This document shows positions 13,312 through 40,823 of a DNA stretch of 64,000 nucleotides, in pieces. This DNA comes from Sphagnum magellanicum (lineage: Eukaryota; Streptophyta; Sphagnopsida; Sphagnales; Sphagnaceae): NCBI GenBank assembly GCA_021904315.1, contig CM038919.1, positions 22,857,666 to 22,921,665 of the forward strand, written 5' to 3'. Every line of letters begins with the position of its first letter. The first letter of the stretch is position 1. The notes beneath the pieces are model-generated. The model saw only the letters and a list, made by a program, of their open reading frames with translations, searched no databases and was not told the DNA's origin. Position numbers and translations under genes: made by a program.

Positions 13312-13900
13312 CCTCATCTAATTAATAGAGAGGTGAACCAGCTAGTTGTTAGGAATTCAGCTTGTTCTTGCCTAAATTCAGGAATTTGAGCTTTTTCAAC
13401 TCTTAACTGTCATTGTTGGTCTTCCTACCTTCCACACAACAAATGGTGTTGCCCTAATATTAAGGCCTGCTTTACACTAGGAGTCATGGCTGAACTTCAA
13501 CCCAAATCAAGCATTCCTATTGGGGCAAAAGTTGAAATCAGCCCCAATGGCTTTACATTACGAGTCAAGGCTGGAGTAGAAAAAATCTTTTCAATCTGCC
13601 CCAAGTTACTAATAACTGCTGAACTTTATGGCCTTGTATTGGCCCCAAGGCTGGAGAAAGGATACCATTGAATTTGGGAGGCCAAATTGACCTTTGAGAT
13701 GCACCCACAATTAATTAATTAATTAATATGTATTGCAAGTAGATATAATCACTAAGAATATATGATATATACACTTACATGCCTCCAAAACATTTACATG
13801 GCGTTGTGGAATTGTAAATGAAAACTTTGTACACTTCCCCCTACATGCAGGTGTAAAAAAACATATTTACACAACTATTAAGTTTTTACACTTACCCACA

Positions 13901-13930
13901 CAACACTGGCTCACACCAGAACCAGTGTTG
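13901..13930. repeat. Short hairpin in block P
   Basis: The 9-bp perfect arms CAACACTGG and CCAGTGTTG surround a 12-base loop. The same hairpin is intact in the right copy at 29,991-30,020. It lies just before the point where the two copies diverge (13,943 and 30,029). No downstream T run marks it as a terminator. Confidence 0.6.
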
Positions 13931-13942
13931 GGCGACTCTTTA

Positions 13943-14556: not shown

Positions 14557-16830
14557 TCTTTCTTTCTTTCTTTTAATTTAACGTCAATACCCAAACCAAA
14601 GAGATCCATTTGACGACAATTACCTAGTTCATTTGAGCAAAACATTCCTGTTGTCTAGGTAAGAAACTAAGTACAAAGCTACTGCTTTCTGATTAACCGA
14701 ATGCATCAATTCAGGCAGTAACTTGCATAGTGTCAACTATTTCCTTAACTGTTGACCAAACTTGCACCGAATGTCATGGTGAGTTGGGCACACTAACAAC
14801 AGGTGGTCTTCATCCTCAACAGCTCCTAGGGGACATAGGTGACAAACCCTATCTCCCCTTGGTACACTCTCAGGCTTTGCATGCCTACCACACTCTACCT
14901 CCAAACGATGGTTTGAACATCTGAACCTTGATAAAGATTGCCTGAGCTGAGCATTTGTGATCGCTTGCAAATAACTCTGATGTGCATATGAGTACCCAAA
15001 TTCTGTTGTACAGCTCGTGTTCATCAGCTGGTATGTACGTAATCTGTTACTTCTGGCTCTGGCCTGTTCACCATAAGTGGATTCTAGATAAGAAGCATGT
15101 GCACTTGCTATAGCACACATGACATTAGTATAGAGAACCCCAACCTCTTGGTCGTCAAGCCACAACTGCACGTTTCGGAGCTAACACTGTTGGTTATCAT
15201 TGAGCACATTGAGCATCTAGAGCTAGATCTGGTAGGCACAGTACAATAGACGATCTGGTGTGGACTCCCGTAATCTATCATAATACTTGAGAGTTTGTTG
15301 CCACCAGAAATACTCCAATGGATACCTTCCAAACTCCCCCAACACAGTAAAAGTGCTTGTTGTTTTATTGACCCCTAATATTCCTCTCAAGAACATTCTA
15401 TGTACTTGTTCTGCTTGTTGCAACCCTTTCGCCCCTGTACAACCTATCCACACCTCGCATGCATAGCTCAGTATTGGGCGTACCAGTGAGTTGAACAACT
15501 GGCACATTACTTCCGGATCTGTTATGCTTAGATCATTGCATCTGCGGCGTAATGTAAACAATGCCTTCTTCCCAGTAGCAGTCAGTTTGTCTATGGCTAC
15601 TACCATGCCTCTTGTAATATGTAACTTTAAGCCCAAGTATCTGAATGATTGAACCCGCTCAATGGTTGTCCCTCTGCATGTGAACTCTGGCGCTACACTA
15701 CGGCATTTCTCAAACACTAGCACCTTGGTCTTGTTCACATTGATGACCAATTGTTGTTCAACATAGAACCCAGATAAAACATCTATTTGTTTCTGCAACC
15801 CTTGTGGGGTCTCTGACATCAATGCCAAATCATCTGCATACATCAGTAATTTGACTCTATCTCTGCTAGCTGTGGCGGGCTATTGCCATCAAGTGCATCT
15901 AGATGCTTCTCAAGTCCATCAAGGTAGAGTCCAAAAAGTAGTGGGCTCAGTGGACAACCTTGTTTGACCCCAATGCCACATGAGAACCGGGCTAATAGCC
16001 CTTTTGTTGGATGCATAACTTTAACGTTCTCTTGGCTGTACATGCTCTGTAGACACTGCATGAAACGACCCATAATTCCCATCTTAGCCAGCACTTGCCA
16101 TAGTAGATCACGAGGCATTGTATCAAAAGTTTTACGAAAATCCACAAAACAACAATACACCTTTTTGCATGTGTGAGTGCTCTATTCAATAAGCGTTCGC
16201 AAAATGTAGAGGTTATCCGTGGTGCGGAAGTCTTTCCTAAAACCAGCCTTTCCCCTGGCACGTAGGCCCCTCTCTTTTGCCCAGCTGCTCAACCGTGCCT
16301 CTAGAATCATGGCAAACACCTTAGTTAGTACATGACCCACTGTGATTCCCTTGTAGTTCTCAAATTGCAAGGCATTAGCACCTTTGTGCAATGCATGAAT
16401 GACTCTAGTAGACAAGCTTGTTGAATAACCTTGTTGCAACAACTTGTTGAACACAATCTGCAATGGTACATGTAACATATCACCAGCATCTAGCAAAAAC
16501 TCTGCTTTGATGCCATCTAAGCTAGCAGACTTGTTACGTTTGAGTCTCCTCATCACTTGCGAAATCTCATCTAAGGTTATGTCATAGTTTAATGTGCTGC
16601 AATCATCACTTACAAAAGGGTGTGACAAGCTCGAGACCACCTGATCTGTAGAGCTGCCCTGTTCCCCAGCTGTATTACTGGGGCATTGTCCTTCCAGCAG
16701 CTTCTGGAAGCTAGCAACCAAGTCTGCTTTGCTGATAGCCACAGATTACTCCTTGTTCTTGGAGTATTGCTTCCAAAAGCTGGCTGGATCTGTCTTTGCT
16801 ACTGCACACAACTGTCGGCCTTACAGCTTC
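14557..16830 (-). mobile_element. 5'-truncated LINE (non-LTR retrotransposon)
   Basis: The minus strand encodes a non-LTR reverse transcriptase in several frames. In coding order: finger region with FENYKGITVGHVLTKVFA (about 16,370), motif A FVDFRKTFDTM (about 16,130), motif B GVKQGCPLSPLLFGLYLDGL (about 15,950), catalytic YADDLAL (15,840), then FRYLGLKL (about 15,640). A C-terminal zinc-knuckle-like CHLC...EDEDHLLLVC segment lies near 14,800. No endonuclease domain is present, so it is 5'-truncated at 16,830. A TTTC run on the plus strand at 14,557-14,575 is an AAAG-type 3' tail on the element strand. The 7-bp TTGGAAT at 14,550-14,556 and 16,831-16,837 is the target duplication. Several frameshifts and an early stop make it inactive. 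Confidence 0.9.
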
Positions 16831-16837
16831 TTGGAAT

Positions 16838-18064
16838 AAGGGCCCAAGCGAGGCAAGCCCAATTATGATAAATCACATGGCCTCAAGCTTAAGCAAACAT
16901 AAAGACTTGGACGATTCTTTGTTTTTGAAATTTTTTTTGGGTGATAGCCATTGCTATGTACTATAAGAAAAAATTAAAGTAGGAGGGCAATTGTTTCAAA
17001 AAAACAAAACTTCCGTAAAAGCAGACATTTTGTTTTTCACAATGCATTTGGTGATTAGATACTTCACAAACACTTGTATCACATAATTTCTAGTGCAATC
17101 AAATGTTTAAAACAACCACACATTATGATTATATATATGATTATAGTAGTATATTAATTAGTTATGAGGACCCCCAAAGTTCAAAATTTTTAATTAAAAA
17201 AAAAACCAAACTCACCATATTTTGAGATAGAAAATCCTCGAGTAGCCATGTTTAGACATGCAGTTCTATGTTGTCTTCAGAACCACGTAGTGGGACTCCT
17301 AAAGAGTATGACTGGTATACAAGGCCCTCTTGCACATGATCGCCGGCCCACCTACCTCACGAAAATTGGGGGGGGGGGGGGGGGGGGGAACACTTTGGCA
17401 ATGATGTTCAAAATAGTTTTTAAATTTATTGGGGCCTGCCCCCACAGGGACAGGGACTATCTCATTGGATCTAACTCTTGGAAGTTTTACCTTATTAGAA
17501 CCGGTTTCTTTGGTGAAAGTTTTTAGACTGTTTAAATTGGAACAGATTTTTGTGTGGTGTTCAGAGTGTGGGCACAGTAGGTAGATGTACAATATCTTAT
17601 CTATTGGCATGGCCAGCGTGTTTGTGACGCCTCGTTTTCCTTCAGAACAGACCACGTACGTTAGGCACACGTCACGGGCTATGTTCCTGGAATAGATAAG
17701 CTCAAAGCGATCAAACATGTGATCTATGTGGGGATTTCCTATCGGATGCATCTGGACCGTCCAGTTGGAACCGTATACGGTAATTCGCGGGCGGGCTTCT
17801 CAGCGGAAAGCTCTGGACCGTCCAGTAGGAACTAATTCTCCTCTACAATATAACATTATAGTTCAGATTCCAGTGTCTCCAAGTATTGCAGACTGTACCA
17901 GATCTAGCTAGTAACCTTGTGACTGTGAAGTGAATTTGAGTCTAGATTTTGATCAAGTCGAAAAAGATCACTTGGTGTCTAAAAAGTTGATCACGAGATT
18001 AGAGGCGGGAGAGATCTGCTGCATCCATATTCGCGGGGAACCTTATCTACGTGCTAGCAGCGAT
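16838..18064. other. 5' flank of the left methylesterase copy
   Basis: This is shared with 30,030-31,763 except for the indels listed for block P. It includes a conserved segment (about 17,400-17,760) ending in GGATGCATCTGGACCGTCCA, then an AT-rich leader (CTCCTCTACAATATAACATT) present upstream of both copies. The copies differ most in this promoter-side region. No other gene is recognised. Antisense frames here are low-complexity. Confidence 0.5.
17100..17397. mobile_element. Unclassified 298-bp insertion with 5-bp target duplication
   Basis: The right copy of block P reads TTGCAATGATGTTC without interruption near 30,586. Here GCAAT occurs on both sides (17,095-17,099 and 17,398-17,402) of a 298-bp insert. 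The ends CAAATGTTT and AACACTTTG are weakly inverted. A 21-G run (17,368-17,388) sits 9 bp from the right end. It is noncoding. It is probably a non-autonomous DNA element, but the family is unknown. Confidence 0.65.
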
Positions 18065-20180
18065 ATGGGACAAGTCGATGGGTCACACCTTCATTGGGTG
18101 CTGGTGCACGGGGCGATGCATGGAGCATGGTCGTTTTATAAGACGATGGCATTGCTGCAGGCAGAGGGGTACAAGGTAACGGCGGTGGATTTGGCAGGCT
18201 GTGGTGCCAGCGCTGTCGACCCCAACACGGTCTCCGATTTCGAAGTCTTTAACCAGCCTTTGGTGGACGTTTTGAATGCCATCCCTGCAACGGAACGGGT
18301 GATAAACCTATGCACTCCTGCATCCAGCTTGAAAGAAATCTAGATATCTAGGGGTAAAGATCCGTCGTGAAGAAAGTTATGGTCTGTTACATGAGTAGTT
18401 TATTTTCAAACCAATGCCCATCATAAAAAATTGCCGCAAATTACGTATCACTGATTTTGCTAAAGTTCTTGGAACTCGCATTGAAGTACTCAGCATCAGA
18501 GCTGGAAGTGCGTCATTTTGAAATTGATCAGACGCTGTGTTTTGGACTCGGTTTTGGTTTAGCTTGAACTTCAATGAGACGCTGCAAGGTCCCGGAATTG
18601 GTACAGTACTGCCATGCGTTATTGAATTGGTGGTTTATATATATTATCTTGGGGACCGGGGTGTGTTCTTCTTCCTGCAGGTGGTGTTAGTGGGGCACAG
18701 TCTTGGATCGTTAAGTCTGTTACATGCGATGGAGAATTTCACGCATAAGATCTCCTTGGCTATTCATGTGGCTGGTGTTCTGCTGCCAAGTGGAGTCTCC
18801 TTCGAAACTGCAGGAGACTACTTTAAAGGCGTGCGTATAAGTCCAAATTCTGATTCTCTCACCACCTATGATCCTTGTCAAATCTTGTAAAATTTCCAGT
18901 TTGAAATCATGCAAGCTGTGTGCAGACCTCAGATCATGTCGCATTCATAATAGTTGTAAACAAATGGGGAAAGGGAAAAACACTGATTTGCGGCTTCACT
19001 TATGTCGAGACTCCGACGCTGTTCATGGACATCTTTCCATTAGGCTGTTGTGATCACAGTAGCTTTCCATTATGTTTTTTCAAGTAGTTGTGCTCACAGC
19101 CATCTCATAGCTCTACCGGTCAAGTATTGACCAATTGTAGGAGGTCTGAGTCAAATTGTGACTTACCATACAATGGTCAACATCTGTCCAATTCTTCATG
19201 AAAACATGTGTTTCCAGAGTTCTTAACACGATTAATTACATATTTTTCACCACAGTTCTTGCAGCTCTACAATGGAAAGTGACCGTCCCTGCAGCAAGAA
19301 ACAAGGCCCTATGTCAATGGCTTTCGCTTAGGCTAGTGTGATCACAGCACACTAATGGAAAGAGACTCTCAGCTTGACAATAGAATAGTGTGATCGAGTT
19401 CTTCGCAGCTGCATGAGTGAATCTTCAGAAACTATACTAGAGTTTACTGAACATCTAACAGTGCAATTGCAGCTTATTAATATTATGGGATGCCTATCGT
19501 GGTTTGTCTCTTCAGTGTTTCCCGGAAAATTTCCAGAAACATGCAAGGGAGATTTTCGGCAACGGGCCTGAAAATCCTCCCACCACAGTCACCATCGACA
19601 AGGCAAACCTGCGGGAAGTTTTTTACAGTTCACCCACAACACCATCTGCGGTACTGAGCCTTCCTAATTTTCATATCCAGCTGCAGGTCATGAGTTCATG
19701 TATTCTGTTGATCAATATAATTCGGTACCACAACTTTATGTAATCAATCAGGTCTAGGTCTGCAGTAATTTCGTGATCAATCCTGCACTGATCTGAATGC
19801 TTTTGAAGAATTGCAAACACTTTTTGAAATTCTGGTCAATTTTTCTCTGGACGTTTGGACCTGCATATGGATGGTTGATCTGGTCATATGATTCACAGGA
19901 TTTGGTACTAGCACAAATCATGTGCAGACCAGCATCTTTCAAGATACAATTTTCCACAGTGGTGCACTATACAAAGGAGAAGCATGGAACAATTCCATCC
20001 GTGTATATCAAGACTTCCATTGACCAATGCATACCTCCTCTATCTCAAGATTACATCATAAAGGCATGTCCCCAAACTGAAGTGGTGGAGATAAAAGCTG
20101 ATCACACGCCTATGTTTTCTGCAACAGACGAGCTTCACGAGGTTCTTGTAAGACTTGCTGCAAAGTACACTAGTGCATAA
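18065..20180 (+). CDS. MES-type methylesterase / alpha-beta hydrolase, copy 1
   Basis: Predicted exons are 18,065-18,298, 18,681-18,830, 19,516-19,650 and 19,899-20,180, giving 266 codons, the usual length of plant methylesterase (MES) and hydroxynitrile-lyase relatives. The ATG is chosen because it precedes HLHWVLVHGAMHGAWSFYK, the family's N-terminal strand and HG oxyanion motif. Longer frames upstream lack an ATG. The nucleophile is in VVLVGHSLGS (Ser85), the acid is in KTSIDQC (Asp215) and the base is in ADHTPMFS (His242). Introns are GT-AG, and the intron 2 donor GTGCGT is weak. MES enzymes hydrolyse methyl esters of salicylate, jasmonate or indole-acetate. The substrate cannot be told here. 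No signal peptide is visible, so it is probably cytosolic. It has a near-identical partner at 31,764. Confidence 0.85.
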
Positions 20181-22112
20181 ACTAAAGCCATTTAATTATA
20201 TTTTTGACCTGACGCAGTCAAGCTGGGTGGTATTTTATTGCGCAAGATTTTTATTTTTTTCCCATATGGACAAAAGTAAAGTATATAGAAATTTCTAAAA
20301 ATTGGTATTACAACAAAATTTGTCCTTGTATATTAAGTGATTTCACTAGATTTGAAGTGAATTCACTAATATTAGGAAACAAGGGCTAAGCTGGAAAGTA
20401 CTGAATTCATAGACTAATGAATAAGGACATGCTAAGTGATTTGAGTGGATTTTGAATCAATTCATTGATCTTAATACAGAAGGACTAGTTGAGAAGTAAT
20501 GAATTCATTGGTCTAAGGAACAAGGACTAGTGAATTGTATCCACATTCCATAATAATGTGGATAATCTAAATTAATTCATATATTAATGATCTTGAAGAA
20601 TTAAATTCAACCTCTGAATCTAGGGTGTTTGAAATGGCAATATTTCATTTGTATTGTTTGAAGTGCATATAATATCCTAGTACTTATGCACTGGAAGCCT
20701 CCAAGATTTATAACATTTGAAACAATATATGTTCAAGTAGTTATTTTCTTTCCATGGAATGGATTTGAACTATGTGACCTATAAAATTGGAGGGTTGAAG
20801 CATAGTAAATTAGATTGCTTATGTTTGTAAAACATAAATGAAAAATAGTTGTAAATAACTTTTGATGTATTGAATTTTAAAACATTATTTAACACAATAT
20901 TTAATATGAACATGTTTTTAGATTTTTTTATAATTATATTTAATAATCACATGTTTGAAATAGGTATAAAGAAAGTTTATTGAAATACAAGCAAAGATCA
21001 TAGTTTATTTTTAAATTTATTTATTTTTAAATTTCAAGTTAATGGTGCATTAAAATGCACTTGTAAATTTTCATTTTTTTATTATTAATACCAAAATTCA
21101 TCAAAATGAATTAATATAAAAATATATATTTTTAAAATCACCAATCAATTTCAAGTTTACTTATTACTGATTTTTATTATATTAGAAATTTTCAATTTTC
21201 ATATTTATCTAATAATAAACTCAATGGAGACATAGATGTTTTCATAATGACATTTAAAAATGAGTTGAATTATTTTTTGAATGTTTATGTTGAAATTTTT
21301 CATATTTAAAATTTGTATTTTAGGTGGGATAGTTTTTTGAACTAATTTACCGTGCTTTCACCCTTGAAGTGTGCAAAAATATAAAACTTATCGCACATTT
21401 TTTGCATGACATATTTAAGTTGAATTAGTTTTTAGATATGAATGAATTAAATCAAGCTTATTTAGGATGTAGTGTGATGCTTAATTGGAAGTTATCATGG
21501 GAGTTACTAGTTGATACTAGTTGGACTAAATTACAAATCAAGGACTTCAATCCCATTTGCAAGTAATCTGTTGATGAGAAAAAGATGAGAAGAAGTACTA
21601 CCAAGCCTTTTGTAATTTTGGTGATCATGGCTAGGTTAGGAATTGTTATATTCGTGGTGTGTAATTGTGCTTGTGATAATGGGAGTTGTTATGCAAGTAA
21701 CCAATTTCGTATAAAGAACTTCAAGAAAACTACGAACTTTTTTTGGAAAACCCTAAAATCTAGTGTGACCAAAGATGGACTTGGAAATGCCATGAATATT
21801 TTTTTGGCTTTGTTATTATTGAAGGTTTTTATTTCTCTGACTTCAAGAAGGGACAAATTTGATTAAAAACTAAAGAAGTTTTCCTTGGCTTGAATAACAA
21901 TATCGCAACTAGAATAATTAATTTGTTTATCCAATTTGACATCCAAATTATATTGAAAAGCTTCTAGATTTCTATTTAAATAGATTATTAACATAATTTG
22001 ATATCTTCCAAAATCGAAATAATTTTAACTTCCAAAATCACACAAGAATGATGATTAAAATTAAAAGCACTTGAGATTGTAAACTTACCAACAAGGTTTG
22101 TTTTCTCGGCAG
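20181..22112. other. 3' flank of methylesterase copy 1, AT-rich
   Basis: This is shared with 33,884-35,685 up to about 21,990. It contains degenerate AATTCACTAGT-like phrases (20,340-20,540). A 93-codon frame at 21,585-21,866 is also open in the right copy, but most differences there change the amino acid, so it is not called a gene. About 120 bp after 21,990 are unique and lead into the truncated gypsy-type element. Confidence 0.5.
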
Positions 22113-24419
22113 AAGGATGAAACCCTTGAGATGCTCTACAGGAGGTTTTTCAAGCTCAAAGAGGATACCTAGAGCATCATAGACCTGGAAGCTAACCACC
22201 AGTATCTTCGTTCGTTACAAGGTAATCCAACACTCCATGCGTAGGATTTGTAACGGGTTTTTACAGAATTTGGAGACTTGTACACTTTGTTGGATGTGTA
22301 CAACATTTTCGAAAAGCTGGAACTAGCTCATGCACACTATGAGGCCAATACTATGAGGCCTCCACGTTCAAGGCCTTAACCTACACCAGTTGTGCCAACC
22401 AAATCATCACATTCTTTTCTAAGGGCTAAAGCGATGCACTCGGCTACACCCATCCTACCTTCTTGCAACTACTATGGCAATCCTGCCCACAAAGCTAGTG
22501 AGTGCAATATTCCTTCTGAAGATTTCGTTTGTGATTATTGTGGGAAAGAGGAACATCAGGAAGTTGTTTGTTTTGCCAAGTTCCCGGAACGGAAGCAACT
22601 TCAATTATAACTGCAAAATCTGCCAGTATCTTCTGTTATCTTTCAACCAAAAACCAAGGCACCTTAGCGTTCCATTCAAGCTTTGCCCAACAAGGGTAAT
22701 TCCAACAAGTTTGCTAAGAAGAAGGAGCACAATGCTGACAAGAGGGAGGTGCTTCAAGCCTATGCAATTCAAATTCAAATTCTACAAAATGAACTTGAAT
22801 CATTGACCGCCCAACTTGCTAATCTAAAAAACAAGTCCTCCCACCAACTAATCATGCCCAACCTGTACAAGGTTTAGGATCACGAGAGGGACCTCCTAGG
22901 TCGTTCTATGGCCTCCCACACGATGCCATGGTTTAAGAGTATGTTCTTTCTACTCCACATAATTTTAGTCTCACACTAGAATTTGCTACTTCTTTTTGCC
23001 CTTCGTATGTCGCAACACAAGAGGGTAATGTGGCACCCAAAGTTTTTACCACTAGGCAGGTAATTCAGACTGATGGATTCACATCTAGTTCAAGTCCTAT
23101 TAGCAAGGCTAGAGGAGCTCGAGCAGTCATGCCACAATCTTTTCGTCTTCTCAACATGGAAGAAGAACTCACCTTGTTGGCGAGGGGGGAGGAGACTACT
23201 ACACCATAAGGTGTTAAGGCATCAAATTTTCGTGTCCCAAGAGTACATGTACATCAGGAAAACACACAATTTTCCACTGATCAACTTATGGAATGCCAAC
23301 TTCAAATGCATGAAGTGGCGCAAAAGCTTGTGAGTACACCATTGTTTGGTTTTCAAGATTTGAAGCTAAGCACCAAGGACATAATTGCAATACTAAAAGA
23401 TACCCTGAACGTTACATCAGGTCCTCTACCAATCCCTGATCCACATGCTACAGTGGTCCCATCCAACACCTTGGAGAGATATTCGATTGGCTCACGTGTT
23501 GCAGATGGCGTTTGTAATTTGGTCATTAGTTCTAGCATGACTAAACTAATGGGCTTTCCTACTTCTGATTCTACATTCACATATCAGAAGGGAGTTAAGA
23601 ACACCTCACTTATGGATTTCTTACTCAACAAAGGTGTTGTGGATAACCATTCTCTCCACAAAGTCTTTCACTCATTTTCGAAAGTGGTGCATAATGAAAG
23701 AACTTCCATCGCCACCGGAGTTGCCATTGTCGACAATACTGGGTTTGTAATCCAAGTGGGAGGACATACACCCAGAGTGGTACTTCTTGATACAGGTGCC
23801 CAACCAATGATTCTTGGAGTTCAATTCACTAAGAAAATGGGCATGTTTGACTCCAAACTATGGAAATCTATGTGGCAGATTCACACCGCTAGTGGGAGCA
23901 TAGAAAAGGTACTTGGGGAAAGCTCGGATTTGATTACACCTAACTTCAATGAAGGTACAGATCAAGAGCTTTGCTTACAGGTCAGATGTTTAGTCATCAA
24001 TGCCACTAGCTATGATGTGCTCATTGGGCAAGAGGCCTTGTTTCCACTAGGTTTCACAATTGACAATTGGTTCGAACATGTGTACTACCGAATGGATTAG
24101 GAGACTGATGGTCACCACCTGGGATACATACCCCTTGATTTACATGAGAACCATAGTCCTATGGCTCACCATTGTATGCTCAAGGAAGCACACACCATTT
24201 CCTACATCCAACAAGTTAGCCACAAGTGGATAGAAGGAGATGAGGAGGAGATAACTTACGCTCAAGCTACTGAAAGCTTGAAGGTGGTTCCTACTAACAT
24301 TCAACATGGACTAGAGATTTTATAGAGGTTCAAAGTAGCCCATAAGCCCTTGGTCAAAACTTTGTCTAGTTTTGAGAGCATGGAGGTATGGTGAACTGAT
24401 TAAACCATTACCTCGTCAG

Positions 24420-25410
24420 CTAATCACCTGGACACCACCTAAGGAAGGGATTACATTACTAGAGCTCTTTGGTGGTATTGGTACAGGTTTCAAAGCCCTA
24501 CTACAGTTAGGGATGGTGGTTCAGAGGTATTTCTACATAGACATTGATCCTACTGTAAGGCAAGTGGCAGCATCAAGAATGAGGGAGTTCGTAACAAGAT
24601 TTCCACAACAGTTTATAACCACAGCATGGAAGGCTAGTTTCATATTTTTGCCCTCTGACATACAATTAATTCAGAAGAATCATATGGAATTACTTGGCCC
24701 CATCGACCTCATCATTTTAGGTTGGGAGTGTCAAGGATTTTCAGCAGCTAGATTTGGAGAAGCCTTGAGTGACACAAGATTTGGTCTTTTCACAGACATG
24801 ATATGATTGATCACCTAGGCTCAATCCATTTCTCCTACACTTGGTTATGTAATTAAAAACACCCCTTTTCAGCTTGATCAAAGGGAGAAAGTCCAGGAGC
24901 ATTACACATGGGTCAAGCATTACCTTAGAGAGCCATTCCTACTTGATGTGGCACAATGCGGTTCTTATGTGCATTGACTACACAACTGGTGGACTAACTT
25001 GGCACCACTATTAGTTCTGCAGCTAACTTTGAAATACACTATCAGAAACCCCAACCTGCAGGTTTGTCACATATTAGATGATCAAAGTTCTTGCTAACTA
25101 GTTATAAGGCAAGAAAAACCTCTTTGGTTTCCTGGGAACATAATAGGAAAACCAAGAGGTGCTTGGCCCACCTTTGTCTCCTTCCTAGGAGCAAATGCCT
25201 TTCAAGGAGATGGACCAAGCTTGGTGCATCGTCATGCTTCAACCACTTGGGATGAACCAAGCCCAGAAGAAAAAGAAAGGGCTATGGGGTTCCAAGTTGG
25301 CACTACATGTCACACTAAGGTGACTAGATTGGAGTGTAACACTCTATTAGGGAGAGGCATGGACCTGAACTCCTTTACATGGTTGTTGGTAACTTGTGTA
25401 CTCTTTTAAA
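24420..25410 (+). other. C5 cytosine methyltransferase domain within the gypsy-type element
   Basis: Motif I ITLLELFGGIGTGF (FGGIGTG from 24,468) is the S-adenosylmethionine loop. LGPIDLIILGWECQGFS holds the motif IV region (Cys codon near 24,729). A NWWTNLAP phrase near 24,990 resembles the motif VIII region of DNMT3/DRM-type enzymes. EPSPEEKERAMGFQVGTT (near 25,255) matches the late C5-methyltransferase E-R-x-MGF region. The domain sits between protease and reverse transcriptase and on the same strand, so it is part of the element and not a host gene. Known C5 enzymes methylate cytosine in DNA. Closest class by eye is DNMT3/DRM-like, which is an inference. Confidence 0.8.
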
Positions 25411-28400
25411 TGTACACAACACCAACACTGATTCAATTAGCTTGCAATTTTGGCGATGTAACCACATAGCACCCCGACCAAGTACACTTGCCTATCTTCA
25501 ACACTCTACATTTCACTCTTAGTGTTGGGGGGGAGGATGTACCATGTAATTTGATTCAAGTTGTGTTTAATACACCTAGAGGTACATTAGCTTCTAGAGA
25601 AACAATTATAACCTTCTACGAATCTGTGCAGTTCGATAGTGGAGAACCCAATACACCAGGTTTTTCAAACATGTTTTCCAGCTCCATTCCATCTGTTTCC
25701 AACTACCCTTTCGTTATGGAGAACCAGCTCACCAAGAAGGAGAGAGACTAGGTCATAGACTTGTTAATCAAATATGAAAATGTGTTCACATTCTCAATGA
25801 AAGACTTAGGTAGGTGTAAGACCATGTAGTTTTCTATAGACCTTATGGATGAGACACCCGTCTATCGAAAGAGGCATAGGTTGAGTAAGCATGAGTGGGA
25901 ACTGGTAGATGAAAGATGCAAAGAGCTCCATAAGGCTCGTCTCATTCAACCATCAAATTCTAATTACCGCTATAGTAATGATAGCAAAGAAAGATTCAGC
26001 TGGATTATGGACTGAAAAAAGGATGTGTGGGGATTATAGGCCTTTGAACCTAGTTACACCTCAAGATAGGTACCCCATGCCCATCCCTGAAGAATTATTT
26101 GATAGCATTGGAGATTCAAACATCTTCATAATTGTGGATCTGAGGCAAGATTTCAACCAGATTGTGTTCGGTGCAAAGGATCACAAGAAAACGACATTCC
26201 ATGGAAGCACCAAGTTATGGGAATGGCTTGTGATACCTTTTGGATAAAAAAATGCACCTATCTTCTTTCAGCGAGTCATGGACCAGGTTATCGAAGGGGC
26301 AGATTTCCTGAAGTCCTACATAGATGACGTCTTAATGCATAATAAGGGACTCCTGCAACATTTGGTTCATCTTGAGGAGTTATTCAAGAGGTTCCACGAA
26401 ATCAATATGAAGATCCATCCTAAAAAGTGTGAGTTTGTTGTCACCTCAATAATCTACCTTGGACATAGAATTTTGCCAAATGGTATTACGGCTCATTGGG
26501 CCAAAGTAATAGCCATTTTGGAGATGCCCAATCCTACTGATGTTCACACATTGAGGAGCTTCATCAGATTATGTAATTACTATAGAATTTATGTCCAAAA
26601 CTTTAGTACTATTGCTCATCCTCTTTATGCATTGCTAAAGAAGGATGTTGCTTGGACATGGACTGATGAGGCTCAAGAAGCTTTCAACACATTCAAGGAA
26701 AAGCTTTCAGAGTTCCCCATTCTGAGAAGACCTGATTTCAGCAAGGTTTTCATTCTACACACTAACTGGAGTGTTCTTGGTATTGGAGCTATTCTTGGCC
26801 AACTTGATAAGGAAGGCAAGGAATATGTTATCGCCTATGCATCCCGAAGTAACAACAAGGCTGAGAGCAACTACTCTTCATACGAGGGGGAGTGCCTTGA
26901 TGTTGTATGGGCTGTCATACATTTTAGGCCTTATCTTTATGGCACCAATGTAAATTTGTGTACCGACCACTAGCCTATCAAGTGGTTGATGACCAACGAT
27001 AAGCTTACTGGTAAATTAGCTCATTGGGCGTTTATACTTTAAGAGTATGAGTTCAAGGTTATTCACTAACCTGGTATTACACATCAAAATGCGGATACCA
27101 TGTCACGAAGACCCCTCACTACCTCTGAACATTTTTCAGAAGTTAAGCATGATTTTGACCAAATTCCAGCAGTACATGTATCTAACGCATCTAGTTATTT
27201 TGCACTACTGCAATGTAACCTGGTTGAGCATCCCATTATGGATATATGGGAGGACTTGGATACTCTGAGGTTTCTTCAACATGGGGAATACCCTCCCCAA
27301 GTTACATCAAATCAGCTAGATCGTATACAACAGTAGTCCAAACACTATTCATGGAGGGATAATCACCTTGTCCAATGCTTACCACAAGGCGCTAGAATGG
27401 TTCCACCACCACATGAATGGCCTAGTCTTATTCAAAAGGTACACTCAGAACTTGGACACTTTAGAGTTAAGCGCACTTATAGCCTTCTCACTCCTCATGA
27501 CCATTGGAGAGGTATGTATGTTAAAGTCTGAGACATCATTGCTAGGTGTGAACAATGTGGTAGAGTGAGAAATTCTTTCTCCTCTCGATAGCTCACACTT
27601 TCTCCATTCCCTATTTAGGGCATGTTCTATCGTTGGTCATGTGATTTAGCTCAAGAGTTACCACAAACCTCCAAGGGTAATGTTTACATCATGATTATGA
27701 TTGAGCATTTTTCAAAATGGGTTGAGTTTGCTGCGCTATCGGACAAGTCATCGCATAGCACCAGCCAGACTTTCTTACAACAGGTTCTAAGTAGGTTTGG
27801 GGCTTGTGCCGAATGCCTTACTGATCAAGAATCAAAATTCAGGGGAGAATTCCAAGACCTACTTGACCATGCTCTCATTGACCATCGTCGGACTTCAAAA
27901 GATCATCCCCAAGCTGATGGCCTTGTAGAAAGGATGGTTCAAACGTGCAAGAAGGGACTTTGGAAGATTTGCCTCACTAAGAACAAAGAGGGTTGGGACC
28001 TGGCCCTCCCTTACATCGCCATGGGTTACAGGATGTTCAAACACGCCTCTTTATCTCATTTTTTTCCTTACTTTTTACTTTTTGGGAAACATCCCATTCC
28101 ACCCTCTTCCATTATTGCTCAAATGGACCAGGTTGTGGACTTGGATTCCCTAGCCACTTGGGCTAGGGTCATTGTAGAAAGGGCTGTTCTATTCAGGAGG
28201 GTTATGCCCATGGCCATGGAGAACCTATTCATTGCACAACATCGAGACACCTTACAATATGCACACACACAAAGTGGTAGTTATAAACCTAAGGTGAGAC
28301 AATTTGATGTTGGTGATTTTGTGTATCTCTAACGGCAACCCAATGATATTTTAGACATTTCTTCCAATCGCACTATCTTGAGGATTAAGGCGATAAGGCT

Positions 28401-28536
28401 TTCAGGTGTGTTGGAATTGCAAGGAGCTGACAGACGCACAATTCAGGATCATTCCAAAAATTATGCGCCCTGCCACTTGCTAAACTTGGATCCTACCATC
28501 ATCACGTCAACTTGGATTCCTCCACTTGATTATCCA

Positions 28537-28671
28537 TGTCAGGTATGTCAAAGGATAGACGATGCTGATCAGATGTTGCTTTGCGATAACTGTAATGGTG
28601 GATACCATCTCTTCTGCCTCAAGCCGAAGCTCATTCAAGTTCCCACCGGCAATTGGTATTGTTCATCATGT
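28537..28671 (+). other. PHD finger at the end of the element's Pol region
   Basis: A complete C4HC3 pattern is readable: C-x2-C-x11-C-x2-C-x4-H-x2-C-x14-C-x2-C, with MLLCDNC, GGYHLFCLKP and GNWYCSSC. PHD fingers read the histone H3 tail, often its K4 state. It follows the integrase C-terminal region directly and precedes the purine tract, the place where chromoviruses carry a chromodomain. A role in choosing integration sites is inference by analogy. Confidence 0.85.
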
Positions 28672-28744
28672 TCTCCTACAACACCTTGACTCCTACTCAA
28701 ACCATGCCATGCTTTTCCCGGCTCAGGTCTAGGGGGGGGATACA

Positions 28745-29213
28745 TGAAAATTTCATCTCAACCTCCTCTTATGCATTGTATATATATGTGTGTGTGCATC
28801 TATTTTTCGTTGATTAGTTTATACCTTTGATTAGCTTTAGTCTTTTTGTTAGTAAAGTTTACTACGCATTAACACCCTCACGACACTGTACATCACGACA
28901 CTACATGTCACAACAACTGTCATGCCCATACATGCCCTCATACATGATGGCCAGTTACAAGCATGCCCATGTGCGCTTTTAGGGTTAATGTACGGTCTTA
29001 GGCAATTGTACGTTATTAGGTACTTAAGGTTTCAGTTTGTTGACGACAATATAAAAGGCCAAACCCTTCCTTTCTTTTTTTAGTTTTTCTAAATTCCTTT
29101 GTCAGGATAGTTTCCTCCATAATAAACTAGGATTTTTAGATGCTCACAGCGGCCATTGCACAGCCACCGTCTACATACATTTGATTTTCTTCTTTCTTTG
29201 CAATTTAAATACA
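28745..29213 (+). repeat. 3' LTR of the gypsy-type element
   Basis: The LTR starts TGAAAATTTCATC right after a G-rich purine tract and ends at about AAATACA, with about 469 bp between. It contains a TATAAAAGG box near 29,051, consistent with an LTR promoter. Its first ~165 bp recur immediately downstream. Confidence 0.75.
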
Positions 29214-29241
29214 AATTTCATCTTAACCTCCTCTTGTGCAT

Positions 29242-29282
<41 letters not shown>

Positions 29283-29396
29283 ATTTATTTTTGATTGATT
29301 AGTTTATACCTTTGACTGGCTTTAGTCTTTTTGTTAGTAAAATTTACTACGGATTAACACCTTTACGACACTGTACGTCACGACACTACACGTCAC
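29214..29396 (+). repeat. Second, partial LTR copy in tandem
   Basis: AATTTCATCTTAACCTCC to ACACGTCACGACACT repeats the start of the preceding LTR, with about a dozen substitutions over some 165 aligned bases. It also has a TG-dinucleotide expansion (29,252-29,281, 15 units). It stops where block P begins. Two abutting LTR starts suggest recombination between elements or a second insertion later cut by the duplication junction. Confidence 0.7.
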
Positions 29397-29400
29397 GACA

Positions 29401-31763
29401 CTCATCTAATTAATAGAGAGGTGAATAGGAGAGGTGTTAGGAATTCAACTTGCTCTTGCCTAAATTCAGGAATTTGAGCTTTTTCAACTCTTAACTCTCA
29501 TTGTTGGTCTTCCTACCTTCCACACAACAAATGGTGTTGCCCTAATATTAAGGCCTGCTTTACACTAGGAGTCACGGCCAAACTTCAACCCAAATCAAGC
29601 GTCCCTATTGGGGCAAAAGTTGAAATCAGCCCCAATGGCTTTACATTACGAGTCAAGGCTAGAGTACAAAAAATCTTTTCAATCTGCCCCAAGTTACTAA
29701 TAACTGCTGAACTTTATGGCCTTGTATTGGCCCCAAGGCTGGAAAAAGGATACCATTGAATTTGGGAGGCCAAATTGACCTTTGAGATGCACCCACAATT
29801 AATTAATTAATTAATATGCATTGCAAGTAGATATAATCACTAAGAATATATGATATATACACTTACATGCCTCCAAAACATTCACATGGGGTTGTGGAAT
29901 TGTAAATGAAAACTTTGTACACTTCCCCCTACATGCAGGTGTAAAAAAACATATTTACACAACTATTAAGTTTTTACACTTACCCACACAACACTGGCTC
30001 ACACCAGAACCAGTGTTGGGCGACTCTTTATCAGAATAAGGGCCCAAGCGAGGCAAGCCCAATTTTGATAAATCACATTGCCTAAAGCTTTAGCAAACAT
30101 AAAGACTTGGACGATTCTTTGTTTTTAAAATTTCTTTTGGGTGATACCCATTGCTACGTACTATAAGAAAAAATTAAAATAGGAGGGCAACTGTTTCAAA
30201 AAAACAAAACTTCCATAGAAGCAGACATTACTTTTTTCACAATGCATGCCTTTCAGAGATGAAAAGTAAATGGTGAAAAACATGCCTTCCAACAATACTA
30301 TTTTCTTTTTCAAGGTCTTTATGTGCATACTGTAACACACAAAAATGAATTAGGAGGTATTGCTTTTAAATTGCAATAATAGTTAGTGCAAGCATACATG
30401 GAACCTTAAACTTTTATTAGTGCACAAAGTTTTCATTGAATTATCTTTCCCGACTCCTTACTTTCACATTGTCTTCTTGACTAAAATGATTTGAAAAAAA
30501 ATCTAAAGTGTCCAGGCCCAAAGCAACCTGTCTCAACATTTGGTGATTGGATACTTCCCAAAAACTTGTATCACATAATTTCAATTGCAATGATGTTCAA
30601 AATAGCTTTTGAATTTATTGGGGCTTGCCCCCACAGGGACAGGGACTGTCGCATTCGATCCAACTTTTGGAAGTTTTCCGTTATTATTTGGAAGTTTTCC
30701 GTTATTATTTGGAAGTTTTCCGTTATTATTTGGAAGTTTTCCGTTATTAGAACCGGTTTCTTTGGTGAAAGTGTTTAGACTGTTTAAATTGGAACAGATT
30801 TTTGTGCGGTGTTCAGAGTGTGGACACAGTAGGTAGATGTACAATATCTTATCTATTAGCATGGCCAGCGTATTTGTGACGCCTCGTTTTCCATCAGGAC
30901 AGACCACGTACGTTAGGCGCACGTCACGGGCTACGTACCCACAATAGATAAGCTAAAAGCGATCAAACATGTGACCTAAGTGGGGAGTTCCTATCGGATG
31001 CATCTGGACCGTCCAGTTGGAACCGTATACGGTAATTCGCGTGCGGGCTTCTCAGCGGAAAACTCCGGCGATGGCTCGGCTGCGGTACCTATCGGATGCA
31101 TCTGGACCGTCCACTGGGAACCGTACGACAAGTCGCGGTCTTGTCCACGGGAAGCGCTGGCAAAGGCTGGACTCGGCTCGACTCGGGACCCCGTTCCCTC
31201 CTCCTCTTCCGCCGCCACGGCTCCTTCCCTCCCTCGTTCAGCTTCCCAAGGATAGCCAGGGAGAGATTGTCGTCAAGCTAGGCGGCGTTTCAGTCGACGT
31301 ACACGAGCTGCCGTACACGATCATGGTGAAGAAGGCTCCGTAGAGCCGCCTTGACCCTGTCGAAGCAGCATCCCCGAAGAATTCGTGTAGCTGCTGCTGC
31401 TGCAGTAAACTATTGTTTCCATAGTTACTAATATGCAAGCAGCTGTGTCATAAGTTAACAAAATCATATTGCAAGTCCCAGTGTCTGATAATCACCAGCT
31501 GGGTGCAGCTCTGGAGCGGCCTCTGAGGACCTAATTCTCCTCTACAATATAACATTATAGTTCAGATTCCAGTGTCTCCAAGTATTGCAGGCTGTACCAG
31601 CTCTAGCTAGTAACCTTGCGATTGTGAAGTGAATTTGAGTCTAGATTTTGATCAAGTCGAAAAAGATCACTTCGTGTCTAAAAATTTGATCACGAGATTA
31701 GAGGCGGGAGAGATCTGCTGCATCCATATTCGCGGGGAACCTTATCTACGTGCTAGCAGCGAT
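29401..31763. other. 5' flank of the right methylesterase copy
   Basis: The first part (29,401-30,028) equals 13,312-13,942. A segment at 30,247-30,540 is absent from the left copy. A GC-rich stretch (about 31,060-31,530) just upstream of the gene is also absent there. It holds a second GGATGCATCTGGACCGTCCA (31,096) about 98 bp after the first (30,998) and a CTG run near 31,390. An open frame here (31,017-31,343) has no family resemblance. This GC-rich stretch could be promoter, leader or an upstream exon. Confidence 0.5.
30669..30749. repeat. Tandem 21-bp repeat, nearly four units
   Basis: The unit GGAAGTTTTCCGTTATTATTT occurs three times in full and once in part. The left copy has a single diverged unit near 17,482. 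The expansion lies about 1 kb upstream of the right methylesterase gene. Frames through it give repetitive peptides and are not real genes. Confidence 0.9.
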
Positions 31764-33883
31764 ATGGGACAAGTCGATGGGTCACACCTTCATTGGGTAC
31801 TGGTGCACGGGTCGATGCATGGAGCATGGTCGTTTTATAAGACGATGGCATTGCTGCAGGCAGAGGGGTACAAGGTAACGGCGGTGGATTTGGCAGGCTG
31901 TGGTGCCAGCGCTGTCGACCCCAACACGGTCTCCGATTTCGAAGTCTTTAACCAGCCTTTGGTGGACGTTTTGAATGCCATCCCTGCAACGGAACGGGTA
32001 ATAAATCTATGCACTCCTGCATCCAGCTTGAATGAAATCTAGATATCTAGGGGTAAAGATCCGTCGTGAAGAAAGTTATGGTCTGTTACATGAATAGTTT
32101 ATTTTCAAACCAATGCCCATCATAAAAAATTGCCACAAATTACGTATCACTGATTTTGCTAAAGTTCTTGGAACTCGCATTGAAGTACTCAGCATCAGAG
32201 CTGGAAGTGCGTCATTTTGAAATTGATCAGACGCTGTGTTTTGGACTCGGTTTTGGTTTAGCTTGAACTTCAATGAGACGCTGCAAGGTCCCGGAATTGG
32301 TACAGTACTGCCATGGGTTATTGAATTGGTGGTTTATATATATTATCTTGGGGACCGGGGTGTGTTCTTCTTCCTGCAGGTGGTGTTAGTGGGGCACAGT
32401 CTTGGATCGATAAGTCTGTTACATGCGATGGAGAATTTCACGCATAAGATCTCCTTGGCTATTCATGTGGCTGGTGCTCTGCTGCCAAGTGGAGTCTCCT
32501 TCGAAACTACAGGAGACTACTTTAAAGGCGTACGTAGGTCCAAACTCTGATTCTCTCACCACCTATGATCCTTGTCAAGTCTTGTAAAATTTCCAGTTTG
32601 AAATCATGCAAGCTGTGTGCAGACCTCAGATCATGTCGCATTCATAATAGTTGTAAACAAATGGGGAAAGGGAAAAACACTGATTTGCGGCTTCACTTAT
32701 GTCGAGACTCCGACGCTGTTCATGGACATCTTTCCATTAGGCTGTTGTGATCACAGTAGCTTTCCATTATCTTTTTTCAAGTAGTTGTGCTCACAGCCAT
32801 CTCACAGCTCTACCGGTCAAGTATTGACCAACTGTAGGAGGTCTGAGTCAAACTGCGACTTACCATACAATGGTCAACATCTGTCCTTTTCTTTATGAAA
32901 ACATGTGTTTCCAGAGTTCCTAACACGATTAATTACATATTTTTCACCACAGTTGTTGCAGCTCTCCAATGGAAAGTGACCGTCCCTGCAGCAAGAAACA
33001 AGGCCCTATTTCAATGGCTTTCCGCTAGGCTAGTGTGATCACAGCACACTAATGGAAAGAGACTCTCAGCTTGACAATAGAATAGTGTGATCTAGTTCTT
33101 CCCAGCTGCATGAGTGAATCTTCAGAAACTATACTCGAGTTTACTTAACATCTAACAGTGCAATTGCAGCTTATTAATATTATGGGATGCCTGTCGTGGT
33201 TTGTCTCTTCAGTTATTCCCGGTAATTGGTCCATTCCTGAAATTTGCAAGGCCGATTTTCGGCAACGGGCCTGAAAATCCTCCCACCACAGTCACCATCG
33301 ACAAGGCAAACCTGCAGGAAGTTTTTTACAGTTCACCCACAACACCATCTGCGGTACTGAGCCTTCCTAATTTTCATATCCAGCTGCAGGTCATGAGTTC
33401 ACTTGTTCTGTTGATCAATATAATTCGGAACCACAACTTTATGTAATCGGTCAGGTCTAGGTCTGCAGTAATTTCATGATCAATCCTGCACTGATCTGAA
33501 TGCTTTTGAAGAATTGCAAACATTTTTTGAAATTCTGGTCAATTTTTCTCTGGACGTTTGGACCTGCATATGGATGGTTGATCTGGTCATATGATTCACA
33601 GGATTTGGTACTAGCACAAATCATGTGCAGACCAGTATCTTTCAAGATACAATTTTCCACAGTGGTGCACTATACAAAGGAGAAGCATGGAACAATTCCA
33701 TCCGTGTATATCAAGACTTCCATTGACCAATGCTTACCTCCTTTATCTCAAGAGTACATCATAAACGCATGTCCCCAAACTGAAGTGGTGGAGGTACAAG
33801 CTGATCACACCCCTATGTTTTCTGCAACAGACGAGCTTCACGAGATTCTTCTAGGACTTGCTGCAAAGTACACTAGTGCATAA
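31764..33883 (+). CDS. MES-type methylesterase / alpha-beta hydrolase, copy 2
   Basis: Predicted exons are 31,764-31,997, 32,380-32,529, 33,213-33,353 and 33,602-33,883, giving 268 codons. The exon structure and reading phase are the same as in copy 1. The triad is Ser85 (GHSLGS), Asp217 (SIDQC) and His244 (ADHTPMF). The intron 2 donor here is GTACGT, stronger than copy 1's GTGCGT. The first 13-15 codons of exon 3 differ in sequence and length from copy 1 and then identity resumes at IFGNGPENPP. Elsewhere I count about 14 amino-acid-changing and 3 silent differences, clustered in the last exon. Both copies look translatable, so they may be diverging in function or be relaxed. The substrate is unknown. 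Confidence 0.85.
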
Positions 33884-35685
33884 ACTAAAGCCATTTAATT
33901 ATATTTTTGATCTGACCCAGTCAAGCTGGGTAGTATTTTATTGTGCAAGATCTTTTTTTTCATATGGGCAAAAGTAAAGTATATAGAAAGTTTTTAAATT
34001 GGTATTACAATAAAATTTTGTCCCTGTATGTGTATGTTAAGTGATTTCACTAGATTTGAAGTGAATTCACTAAAGTTAGTAAACTAGTGAATTCACTAAT
34101 GTTAGTAAACTAGTGAATTCACTAATGTTAGTAAACTAGGGCTACTTGGAAAGTATGGAATTCATTAGTCTTAACAAAGAAAGACTAGTTGAAAAATAAT
34201 GAATTCATTGGTCTAGTGAACAAGGACCGGTGAATTGTATCCACATTCTATAATAATGTGGATAATCTAAATCAATTCATATATTAGTGATCATGAAGAA
34301 TTAAATTCAACCTCTGAATCTAGGGTGTTTGAAATGACAATTATTCATTTGTATTATCTGAAATGCATATAATATCCTAGTACTTATGCACTGGAAGCCT
34401 CCAAGATTTATAACATTTGAAACAATATATGTTAAAGTAGTTATTTTCTTTCCATGGAATGGATTTGAACTATGCAACCTATACAATTTGAGGGTTGAAG
34501 CATAGTAAATTAGATTGCTTATCTTAGTTATAGCATAAATGAAAAATAGTCATAAAATAGTTGTAAATAAGCTTTGATATATTGAATTTAAAAACATTAT
34601 TTAACACAATATTTAATATGAACATCTTTTTAGATTTTTTTAATAATTATATTTAATAATCACATGTTTCAAATCGGTATAAAGAAAATTTATTGAAATA
34701 CAAGCAAAGATCATAATTTATTTTTAATTAGTTTTTTAAAAATTTCAAGTTAATGGTGCATTAAAATGCACATGTAAATTTTCATTTTTTATTATTAATA
34801 TCAAAATTCATCAAACTGGATTAATATTAAAATATTTTTTTAAAAATCACCAATCAATTTAAAGTGTACTTACTACTTATTTTTATTATATTAGAAATTT
34901 TCAAATTTTATATTTATCTAATAATGGAGACATAGATATTTTCATAATGACATTTAAAAATGAGTTGAATTATTTTTTGAATGTTTATGTTGAAAGTTTT
35001 CATATTTAAAAATTATATTTTAGGTGGGATAGTTTTTTGAACTAATTTACCATGCTTTCACCCTTGAAGTGTGCAAAAATATAAAATTTATTACACATTT
35101 TTTACATGACGTATTTAAGTTGAAATATGAATGAACTAAATCAAGCTTATTTAGGATGTAGTGTGATGCTTAAGTAGAATTTATCATGGGAGTTACTAGT
35201 TAATACTAATTGGACTAAATTACAAATCAAGGACTTCAATCCCATTTGCAAGTAATCTGTTGATGAGAAAAAGATGAGAAGAAGTACTACCAAGCCTTTT
35301 GTAATTTTGGTGATCATGGCTAGGTTAGGAAATGTTATATTCCTGGTGTTTAATTGTGCTTGTGATAAGGGGAATTGTTATGCAAGAAATCAATTACATA
35401 TAAAGAACTTCAAGAAAACTACAAACTTTTTTTTGAAAACCTTAAAATATAGTGTGACCAAAGATGGACTTGGAAATGCCATGAATATTTTTTTGGCTTT
35501 GTTATTATTGAAGGTTTTTATTTCTCTGACTTCAACAAGGGACAAATTTGATTCAAAACTAAAGTTTTCCTTGACTTGAATAACAATATCGCAGCTAGAA
35601 CAATTAATGTGTTTATCCAATTTGACATCCAAATTATGTTGAAAAGTTTGTAGATTTCTATTCAAATAGATCATTAAACATAACT
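33884..35685. other. 3' flank of methylesterase copy 2, AT-rich
   Basis: This is shared with 20,181-21,990. A tandem 26-bp repeat (GTGAATTCACTAATGTTAGT...) with three units lies at 34,061-34,138. The left copy has one. No gene is called. Confidence 0.5.
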
Positions 35686-37926: not shown

Positions 37927-38300
37927 GAGCATCTCCAAAGGTGCTCAGTATGTGACTCCAGACAGTAAAATTTATTGCGAAAAAGTCATAATGTGCCGGT
38001 TTACCTCAGGAAACTGGTTTTTCTGCACCAAATTCGTGCAACTTGCCATGGCCGGTAAAAGGCACAACACACTTGTGTACCTCCCAAAAAGAGTGTAATA
38101 AATTGCACATGACTGCAACTCAGTATTTCTGATTGGTCGATCACAATGATTGGTCTAGGTGGTTTGCTATTAGTATTCCCCCATGTATATGTAGTTCCAG
38201 TTTTCAGTTTTATTGGTGGGGTTGCCAAAAAAACACAGCTAAACTTAGACATTTAATTTTACTATCTAGAGTTACGTACAGAGCACCATTGGAGATGCTC
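37927..38300. mobile_element. Tourist-like MITE, family 1, right copy
   Basis: This has the same terminal inverted repeats as 3,203-3,576. The left TAA flank is intact and the right flank reads TGA. Same position relative to the PPR pseudogene. Confidence 0.85.
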
Positions 38301-38309
38301 TGATGCTCC

Positions 38310-40151: not shown

Positions 40152-40254
40152 GGGTAAGGCCTTAGGACCAGGGCATTATTAGAAGCATGACCACATTCAG
40201 CTGCCATCTCACATGGCCTTCTTTTGGTAATGCCCTTGTCCTAAGGCCTTACCC
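40152..40254. mobile_element. Short inverted-repeat MITE, family 2, right copy
   Basis: The terminal arms are about 27 bp and differ at one position, starting GGGTAAGGCCTTAGGACCAG. The internal spacer is about 50 bp. It is the counterpart of 5,744-5,849 and better preserved. Confidence 0.75.
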
Positions 40255-40596
40255 TAAACTAAACCAATTAGTTTTCTTAAAGTTGTCACCAAGAGTTTTC
40301 AAATGTTGTGTCAAACAGTCCTTGTTCACTAGATCAGTGAATTCATTGCTTTCCTACTAGGTCTTGTTCACTTATAATCCAATGAAATCATTTGACATTA
40401 TGAGACATCTTTTGTTGTAGTTAACTATCCATTTGAAGACAATTTTTATTTTCAAGTCACGTTTTACATAATCGATATTCTGTTTGGCTATTCATATTTG
40501 AAATTGGTTCAATAAGCATTTGTAATTATTACAATACAATTTATTTTGACATGAAAGTGAAAAAAAAGTTGTAAATTTTATTTGAAATCTTTTTAA

Positions 40597-40809: not shown

Positions 40810-40823
40810 TAAGAATAATAAAA

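What the first reader, a model, noticed from the sequence alone, without database searches (positions are those of the whole stretch)
24420..25410. Cytosine DNA methyltransferase carried inside a Ty3/gypsy-type element
A C5-methyltransferase domain (FGGIGTG motif I, ECQGF region, E-R-x-MGF region) lies between protease and reverse transcriptase, on the same strand as the element. Captured methyltransferases in retroelements have been reported in dinoflagellates and a charophyte alga. I do not know of this arrangement being standard in land-plant gypsy elements. Such an element might methylate DNA itself, which could help it hide or be tolerated.
Basis: partly seen in the sequence, partly recalled or inferred. 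Interest (0 to 1): 0.88.

Follow-up and report, generated by a model that had tools for sequence, protein, structure and literature searches.

The report
Plant retrotransposon carrying a DNA methyltransferase
The window holds a broken copy of a large family of plant jumping genes that carry their own DNA-methylating enzyme and a histone-reading finger and seem to insert in an unusual, circle-like way, so they may mark their own DNA as they spread.

Summary
Confirmed, and not a chance fragment. The methyltransferase (24381-25409) is a DNMT3-type domain in one reading frame with the pre-RT linker of a Ty3/gypsy pol. In the window's own genome (439 Mb) PF00145 gives 124 matches. I fetched the 20 best-ranked places: 2 are host DRM genes; the other 18 carry this methyltransferase, and 16 of these 18 have RT, integrase and a C-terminal PHD finger behind it in the same order and strand. 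At least three subfamilies share the layout; methyltransferase and pol distances correlate at r=0.99 (17 loci); dN/dS of the domain has median 0.37.

The family is built A-coding-B-A-B (DIRS-type split repeats), as reported for the charophyte KnitGypsy-Dnmt3. In 9 of 9 copies with both ends in hand the element ends TGTC...GACA inside 4-bp target duplications, whether A-coding-B-A-B (5) or A-coding-B (4). I infer that a gypsy-type integrase cuts circular DNA at the palindromic B|A junction. This, the PHD finger and the probable land-plant host go beyond what I found in print. The window copy is 5'-truncated and dead. Self-methylation is untested; no tool names the host.

The parts
22030..29402 (+). 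Whole element remnant, 5'-truncated, lying at a break in a tandem duplication of the host
   Evidence: Self-comparison: 17809-22026 ~ 31507-35712 (93%) and 13308-13942 ~ 29397-30030 (97%); borders aligned
22107..22664 (+). Remnant of gag with Cys/His-rich stretch (read by eye)
   Evidence: Reading frame; no Pfam match, so this label is mine
23210..24100 (+). Aspartic protease region
   Evidence: PF13975 E 1.3e-4, below its cut-off
24381..25409 (+). DNMT3-type cytosine-5 methyltransferase domain, broken by four stops inside
25410..25949 (+). Coding linker between methyltransferase and RT, same frame as the methyltransferase
   Evidence: 3 stops in 180 codons, 14 of 1000 shuffles as low or lower; together with the methyltransferase 0 of 1000; no Pfam match
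25909..26973 (+). Reverse transcriptase and RNase H
   Evidence: PF00078 E 1e-23, PF17919 E 7.9e-32; Ty3 RT best in PDB, E 1.3e-31
27100..28332 (+). Integrase: zinc domain and rve core
   Evidence: PF17921 E 1.1e-11, PF00665 E 1.9e-11; Ty3 best in PDB, E 9.9e-8
28537..28671 (+). PHD finger at the C-terminus of the polyprotein
   Evidence: PF00628 E 4.6e-13; WSTF, CHD4, KMT2D, KDM5D, ATXR5 PHDs best in PDB
28731..28739 (+). G-run directly before repeat B1 (polypurine tract)
28740..28915 (+). Repeat B1
   Evidence: 81% to B2 with gaps; 81% to B of L107
28916..29208 (+). Repeat A2, with TATAAAAG at 29050
   Evidence: 72-77% to A of L107, L106, L109, L110, L115
29209..29400 (+). Repeat B2, ending GACA at the border to host DNA

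Best explanation
A family of Ty3/gypsy-type retroelements whose polyprotein reads gag - protease - DNMT3-type methyltransferase - RT - RNase H - DDE integrase - PHD finger, flanked by DIRS-type split repeats (A-coding-B-A-B). The window holds one old, 5'-truncated, inactive copy. SHOWN: the domain order, the co-inheritance and constraint of the methyltransferase, the split repeats, element ends TGTC...GACA with 4-bp duplications, and two insertion forms (A-coding-B-A-B and A-coding-B). INFERRED: plus-strand synthesis starts at the G-run before B, giving DNA with B-A units that is closed to circles; the integrase cuts the palindrome at B|A (GACA-GC-TGTC) and inserts; circles with one unit give A-coding-B, circles with two give A-coding-B-A-B. 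INFERRED, weaker: the PHD finger steers insertion by reading histone H3, perhaps unmethylated at K4, and the methyltransferase marks the new DNA around insertion, so that the copy starts out as silent, tolerated chromatin.
For: 124 PF00145 matches in the own genome; 16 of 18 fetched methyltransferase loci with RT-IN-PHD in order; Mantel r 0.990 over 17 loci, 0 of 2000 permutations; dN/dS median 0.37 in 83 pairs, against 0.34 for RNase H-IN-PHD in 61 pairs; A-coding-B-A-B in L097, L105, L107 and B-A-B in L100, L106, L109, L115 and the window; 4-bp duplications in 9 of 9 copies of both forms; palindrome GACAGCTGTC at B|A exact in L097, L100, L105, L106, L109; identical A2|B2 joint in L106, L107, L109; PHD last in the open frames of L109 and L097; DNMT3 fold first.
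Against: No circle, transcript, primer site or methylation was seen. Only the 20 best-ranked of 124 places were fetched, not a random sample. L102 lacks RT-IN-PHD and L111 has RT inverted. The window's methyltransferase group has ECQ where the other groups and phage enzymes have PCQ in the catalytic loop, which may lower activity. dN/dS includes decaying copies; only 3 stop-free methyltransferase pairs (0.21, 0.27, 0.46). In the one earlier test the charophyte enzyme showed no activity in yeast, called inconclusive by its authors (PMC5890265). The element's CpG ratio (0.34) equals the window mean (0.35), though it is below the two flanks (0.58, 0.66), so it gives no clear footprint.
Confidence: 0.75

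Rival explanations
1. Independent capture of a DNMT3 domain in this lineage, unrelated to the charophyte KnitGypsy-Dnmt3.
For: Captures have happened more than once in eukaryotes (PMC5890265). No sequence comparison with the charophyte element was possible here.
Against: Both put an unrearranged DNMT3 in the Pol of a gypsy element and both have DIRS-type repeats (figure legend; here), an unlikely pair of coincidences.
Confidence: 0.2
2. Ordinary LTR element: the B-A-B run is a normal 3' LTR (B+A) with a truncated second LTR behind it.
For: From the window alone this fits as well.
Against: In L097, L105 and L107 the 5' end has A alone, and four copies of the form A-coding-B are framed by 4-bp duplications.
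Confidence: 0.03
3. Chance nested fragment: a host methyltransferase gene or retrocopy that fell into one gypsy copy.
For: In one window alone it could not be excluded.
Against: 18 of 20 fetched places have it, 16 with the rest of pol behind it; same frame as the pre-RT linker; distances match those of pol.
Confidence: 0.01
4. The methyltransferase is kept for a role other than marking new DNA: binding nucleic acid, methylating RNA, or helping cDNA synthesis, with the ECQ group having lost or changed catalysis.
For: ECQ in 13 of 13 readable copies of the window's group with the domain still constrained.
Against: Catalytic Cys in 19 of 19 and motif VI Glu in 17 of 19 copies; PCQ in 6 of 6 copies of other groups.
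Confidence: 0.25

Closest known systems
KnitGypsy-Dnmt3 of the charophyte Klebsormidium nitens (de Mendoza et al. 2018, PMC5890265; parts 1-4 of 7 of the text read, rest by passages)
   Same: Gypsy-type Pol holding an unrearranged DNMT3 domain; DIRS-type repeat layout; purifying selection on the domain.
   Different: Here a probable land plant; a PHD finger after integrase (the word PHD does not occur in that main text); 4-bp target duplications and a second, A-coding-B form; ECQ loop in one group. Sequences could not be compared.
SymbioDIRS-Dnmt3 and SymbioLINE-Dnmt of dinoflagellates (same paper)
   Same: Retroelements with a cytosine methyltransferase; the DIRS ones share A-coding-B-A-B.
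   Different: DIRS and LINE types with tyrosine recombinase or endonuclease, not Ty3-type integrase.
Chromoviruses of plants (recalled)
   Same: Gypsy pol with a chromatin-reading domain at the integrase end.
   Different: PHD finger instead of a chromodomain; methyltransferase; split repeats.
DIRS/PAT-like elements with split direct repeats (recalled; PMC4157794 seen in a search listing only)
   Same: A-coding-B-A-B layout and an inferred circular intermediate.
   Different: Tyrosine recombinase and no target duplication (recalled), here rve integrase and 4-bp duplications.

Membership tests
Ty3/gypsy | Order PR - RT - RNase H - integrase, RT and integrase of Ty3 type | tested here: met
KnitGypsy-Dnmt3 | Unrearranged DNMT3 domain inside gypsy Pol | tested here: met
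   Motif order I, IV, VI, VIII, X; same frame as the pre-RT linker; 16 of 18 loci
KnitGypsy-Dnmt3 | DIRS-type repeat layout A-coding-B-A-B | tested here: met
   L097, L105, L107 whole; B-A-B in L100, L106, L109, L115, window; but six of the copies have only one B
KnitGypsy-Dnmt3 | Ka/Ks below 0.2 in the methyltransferase | tested here: inconclusive
   Median 0.37, range 0.21-0.72 in 83 pairs including decayed copies; stop-free pairs 0.21, 0.27, 0.46
KnitGypsy-Dnmt3 | Sequence clade with the K. nitens copies | not testable with these tools
   No K. nitens sequence could be fetched; protein search switched off
DNMT3 | Canonical motif order and DNMT3 fold | tested here: met
   model of middling confidence
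DRM | Rearranged motif order (VI-X before I-V) | tested here: not met
   Motif I comes first; the two host DRM loci do not match the window's domain at E 1e-3
CMT or MET1 | BAH domain, or chromodomain inside the methyltransferase | tested here: inconclusive
   No such Pfam match in the window's pieces or in two element frames; absence in broken or partial frames is weak evidence
Chromovirus | Chromodomain after integrase | tested here: not met
   PHD and no chromodomain in the C-terminal frames of the window, L109 and L097
DIRS | Tyrosine recombinase and no target duplication | tested here: not met
   rve integrase and 4-bp duplications in 9 of 9

The most novel reading that the evidence does not exclude
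A Ty3-type DDE integrase has left the ends of linear cDNA and uses an internal palindrome (GACA-GC-TGTC at B|A) of circular DNA, so that these elements insert circles of one or two repeat units, as DIRS elements do with a different enzyme, while carrying their own DNMT3 methylase and a histone-reading PHD finger: a self-marking, chromatin-reading, circle-integrating retroelement kept through several subfamilies in a land plant.
Probability: 0.55. Interest if true: 0.93.

Novelty: new variant of a known kind. Interest (0 to 1): 0.82.

Why it matters
DNA methylation usually silences retroelements; this family carries a de novo type methylase, has kept it under constraint through several subfamilies, and pairs it with a histone reader on the integrase. 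A 2019 paper states that methylase-coding transposons are not present in land plants (PMC6338049, passage); if the host is a land plant, as its genes suggest, that no longer holds. The two insertion forms with 4-bp duplications make the integration route directly testable and would break the pairing of split repeats with tyrosine recombinases.

Tried and rejected
Phage origin of the methylase: over motifs I-IV phage enzymes score like DNMT3A (63-92 in 7 of them, DNMT3A 88; tblastn up to E 2e-7). The C-terminal stretch fits DNMT3A (50) better than the 7 phage enzymes (23-29), but the DNMT3A pieces were the ones that one search had already picked as matching. The fold ranks DNMT3 first. No tree was made; host or viral origin is open. 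Other viral scans gave no relatives. A single-sequence fold was useless (pLDDT 34.5). The tandem-LTR reading of B-A-B was dropped. CpG footprint: element 0.34, window 0.35, flanks 0.58 and 0.66, not decisive. The gag stretch, PPR-like and several other window frames gave no Pfam match. No Rfam match at gathering score and no tRNA in the window. Literature searches; I saw no land-plant, PHD-bearing or target-duplication report of such an element in their listings or the passages read. The absence of other folds says nothing.

Full report
WHAT IS IN THE WINDOW. Between about 22030 and 29402 lies a gypsy-type element on the plus strand. Pfam finds an aspartic protease (23210-24100, E 1.3e-4, under its cut-off), DNA_methylase (E 6.4e-5 for the first open piece, 2.5e-5 with X at stops, both over the cut-off), RT and RNase H, integrase zinc and core domains, and a PHD finger (E 4.6e-13). 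RT/RNase H and integrase are nearest to Ty3 among solved structures. The methyltransferase frame continues into the pre-RT linker: 8 stops in 523 codons, against 24.8 on average and never 8 or fewer in 1000 shuffles. Four stops lie inside the domain and the motif VI acidic residue reads Lys, so the copy is dead. It sits at a break in a tandem duplication of 92-97% identity, which explains the lost 5' end.

IT IS A FAMILY. After 27 unanswered calls the own genome (438,994,042 bases, 31 contigs) gave 124 PF00145 matches, a lower bound, as 123 of 387 candidates were scored. Two of the 20 are host DRM genes (PDB DRM2, E 6.5e-54 and 1.8e-55). All other 18 match the window's methyltransferase. In 16 of 18, RT, integrase and PHD follow on the same strand; L102 lacks them and L111 has RT inverted and no integrase or PHD match. 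In 14 of these 16 the protease stands in its place; in L100 the best protease match lies elsewhere and L103 has none. Open frames of L109 and L097 show DNA_methylase in one and RNase H, integrase and PHD in another, PHD last.

SUBFAMILIES, CO-INHERITANCE, CONSTRAINT. Against copy L110 the methyltransferases are 78-95% identical in the window's group (window 85%), 41-42% in L097/L099/L100/L105, 37% in L113 and 34% in L116; RNase H-IN-PHD follows. Distances of the two parts correlate at r 0.990 (17 loci, 0 of 2000 permutations), and 0.966 within the close group of 11 (0 of 2000). dN/dS of the methyltransferase: median 0.37, range 0.21-0.72 in 83 of 171 pairs; 88 were left out for dS saturated, over 1.5 or under 0.03. 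RNase H-IN-PHD: median 0.34 in 61 of 136 pairs. Many of these copies are decaying; the three stop-free methyltransferase pairs give 0.21, 0.27 and 0.46. The catalytic Cys is kept in 19 of 19 readable copies (window included), motif VI Glu in 17 of 19. The catalytic loop reads ECQ in 13 of 13 of the window's group and PCQ in 6 of 6 others.

REPEATS AND ENDS. Three copies show A-coding-B-A-B whole: L097 (A 99%, B 100% between copies), L105 (A 99%, B 98%), L107 (A 97%, B 99%); B-A-B stands also in L100, L106, L109, L115 and the window, and with a shortened A in L104. L099, L103, L108, L110, L112 and L114 have a single B followed by other DNA. A G-rich run stands directly before B in 11 of the 13 copies printed; in L097 and L105 it is one or two bases off. 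At B|A stands GACAGCTGTC exactly in L097, L100, L105, L106 and L109, and with one change in L104 and L107; not in L115 or the window. The A2|B2 joint is identical in L106, L107 and L109. Ends are TGTC...GACA with 4-bp duplications in 9 of 9 copies where I had both ends: TTTC L097, CGCC L105, CAAG L106, ATAT L107, CAAT L109 (long form); ATTT L108, GGTT L110, AACA L114, CTTG L099 (short form). L115's 5' end was sought in 781 bases and not found. One 4-bp match by chance has a probability of about 0.005.

MECHANISM. Two forms with the same ends are what one expects if the integrase cuts a circle at B|A: a circle with one B-A unit leaves A-coding-B, one with two leaves A-coding-B-A-B with the ligation joint A|B inside. 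The G-run before B would start the plus strand there, so that linear cDNA would begin at B and end at A, not at TGTC and GACA; the ends used for insertion would then not be the ends of linear cDNA. This is inference; circles, transcripts and primer sites were not seen. The PHD resembles those of WSTF, CHD4, KMT2D, KDM5, ATXR5 and BAZ2, several of which read H3 unmethylated at K4 (recalled); in the place of a chromodomain it may steer integration. The methylase may mark new DNA, as de Mendoza et al. propose for theirs (PMC5890265; parts 1-4 of 7 read, further passages).

HOST. No tool names it. Two DRM genes point to a streptophyte; genes of the plant MES/hydroxynitrile-lyase kind (PDB E 1.5e-18) fit a land plant. 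About 439 Mb with 20 large contigs reminds me of Sphagnum (recalled, untested). DNMT3 is said to be widespread in plants but lost in angiosperms (PMC11540031, passage).

NOVELTY. DNMT3 in a gypsy Pol with DIRS-type repeats is known from one charophyte. New here, as far as ten literature searches and the parts read show: a probable land-plant host, the PHD finger, the target duplications and two insertion forms, and the group-wide ECQ change. Only passages were seen of PMC6338049, PMC12344493, PMC11540031, PMC10952607, PMC9477723 and PMC9122828.

Noticed in passing
946-22026 and 29397-43249: Tandem segmental duplication at about 92% identity holding two copies of a methylesterase/hydroxynitrile-lyase-like gene (17915-20180, 31614-33883).
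   Followed up: partly
14737-16745 (-): Broken LINE-like reverse transcriptase (RVT_1 E 6.2e-8 in one piece).
   Followed up: no
G000:C3:13555280-13557082 (-): Open frame of 637 aa with two DNA_methylase pieces in canonical order, probably a host methylase gene.
   Followed up: no
L113, L116: Two further, very diverged subfamilies (30-33% to the window's methyltransferase) with the same domain order.
   Followed up: partly
window subfamily, 24726: Catalytic-loop Pro replaced by Glu (ECQ) in 13 of 13 copies of one group while other groups keep PCQ.
   Followed up: partly
29242-29281: GT microsatellite grown inside repeat B2 of the window copy, shorter in B1.
   Followed up: no
48037-48525, 49226-49597; 51503-52649 (-): Aldehyde dehydrogenase exons and a formiminotransferase-like gene.
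   Followed up: no
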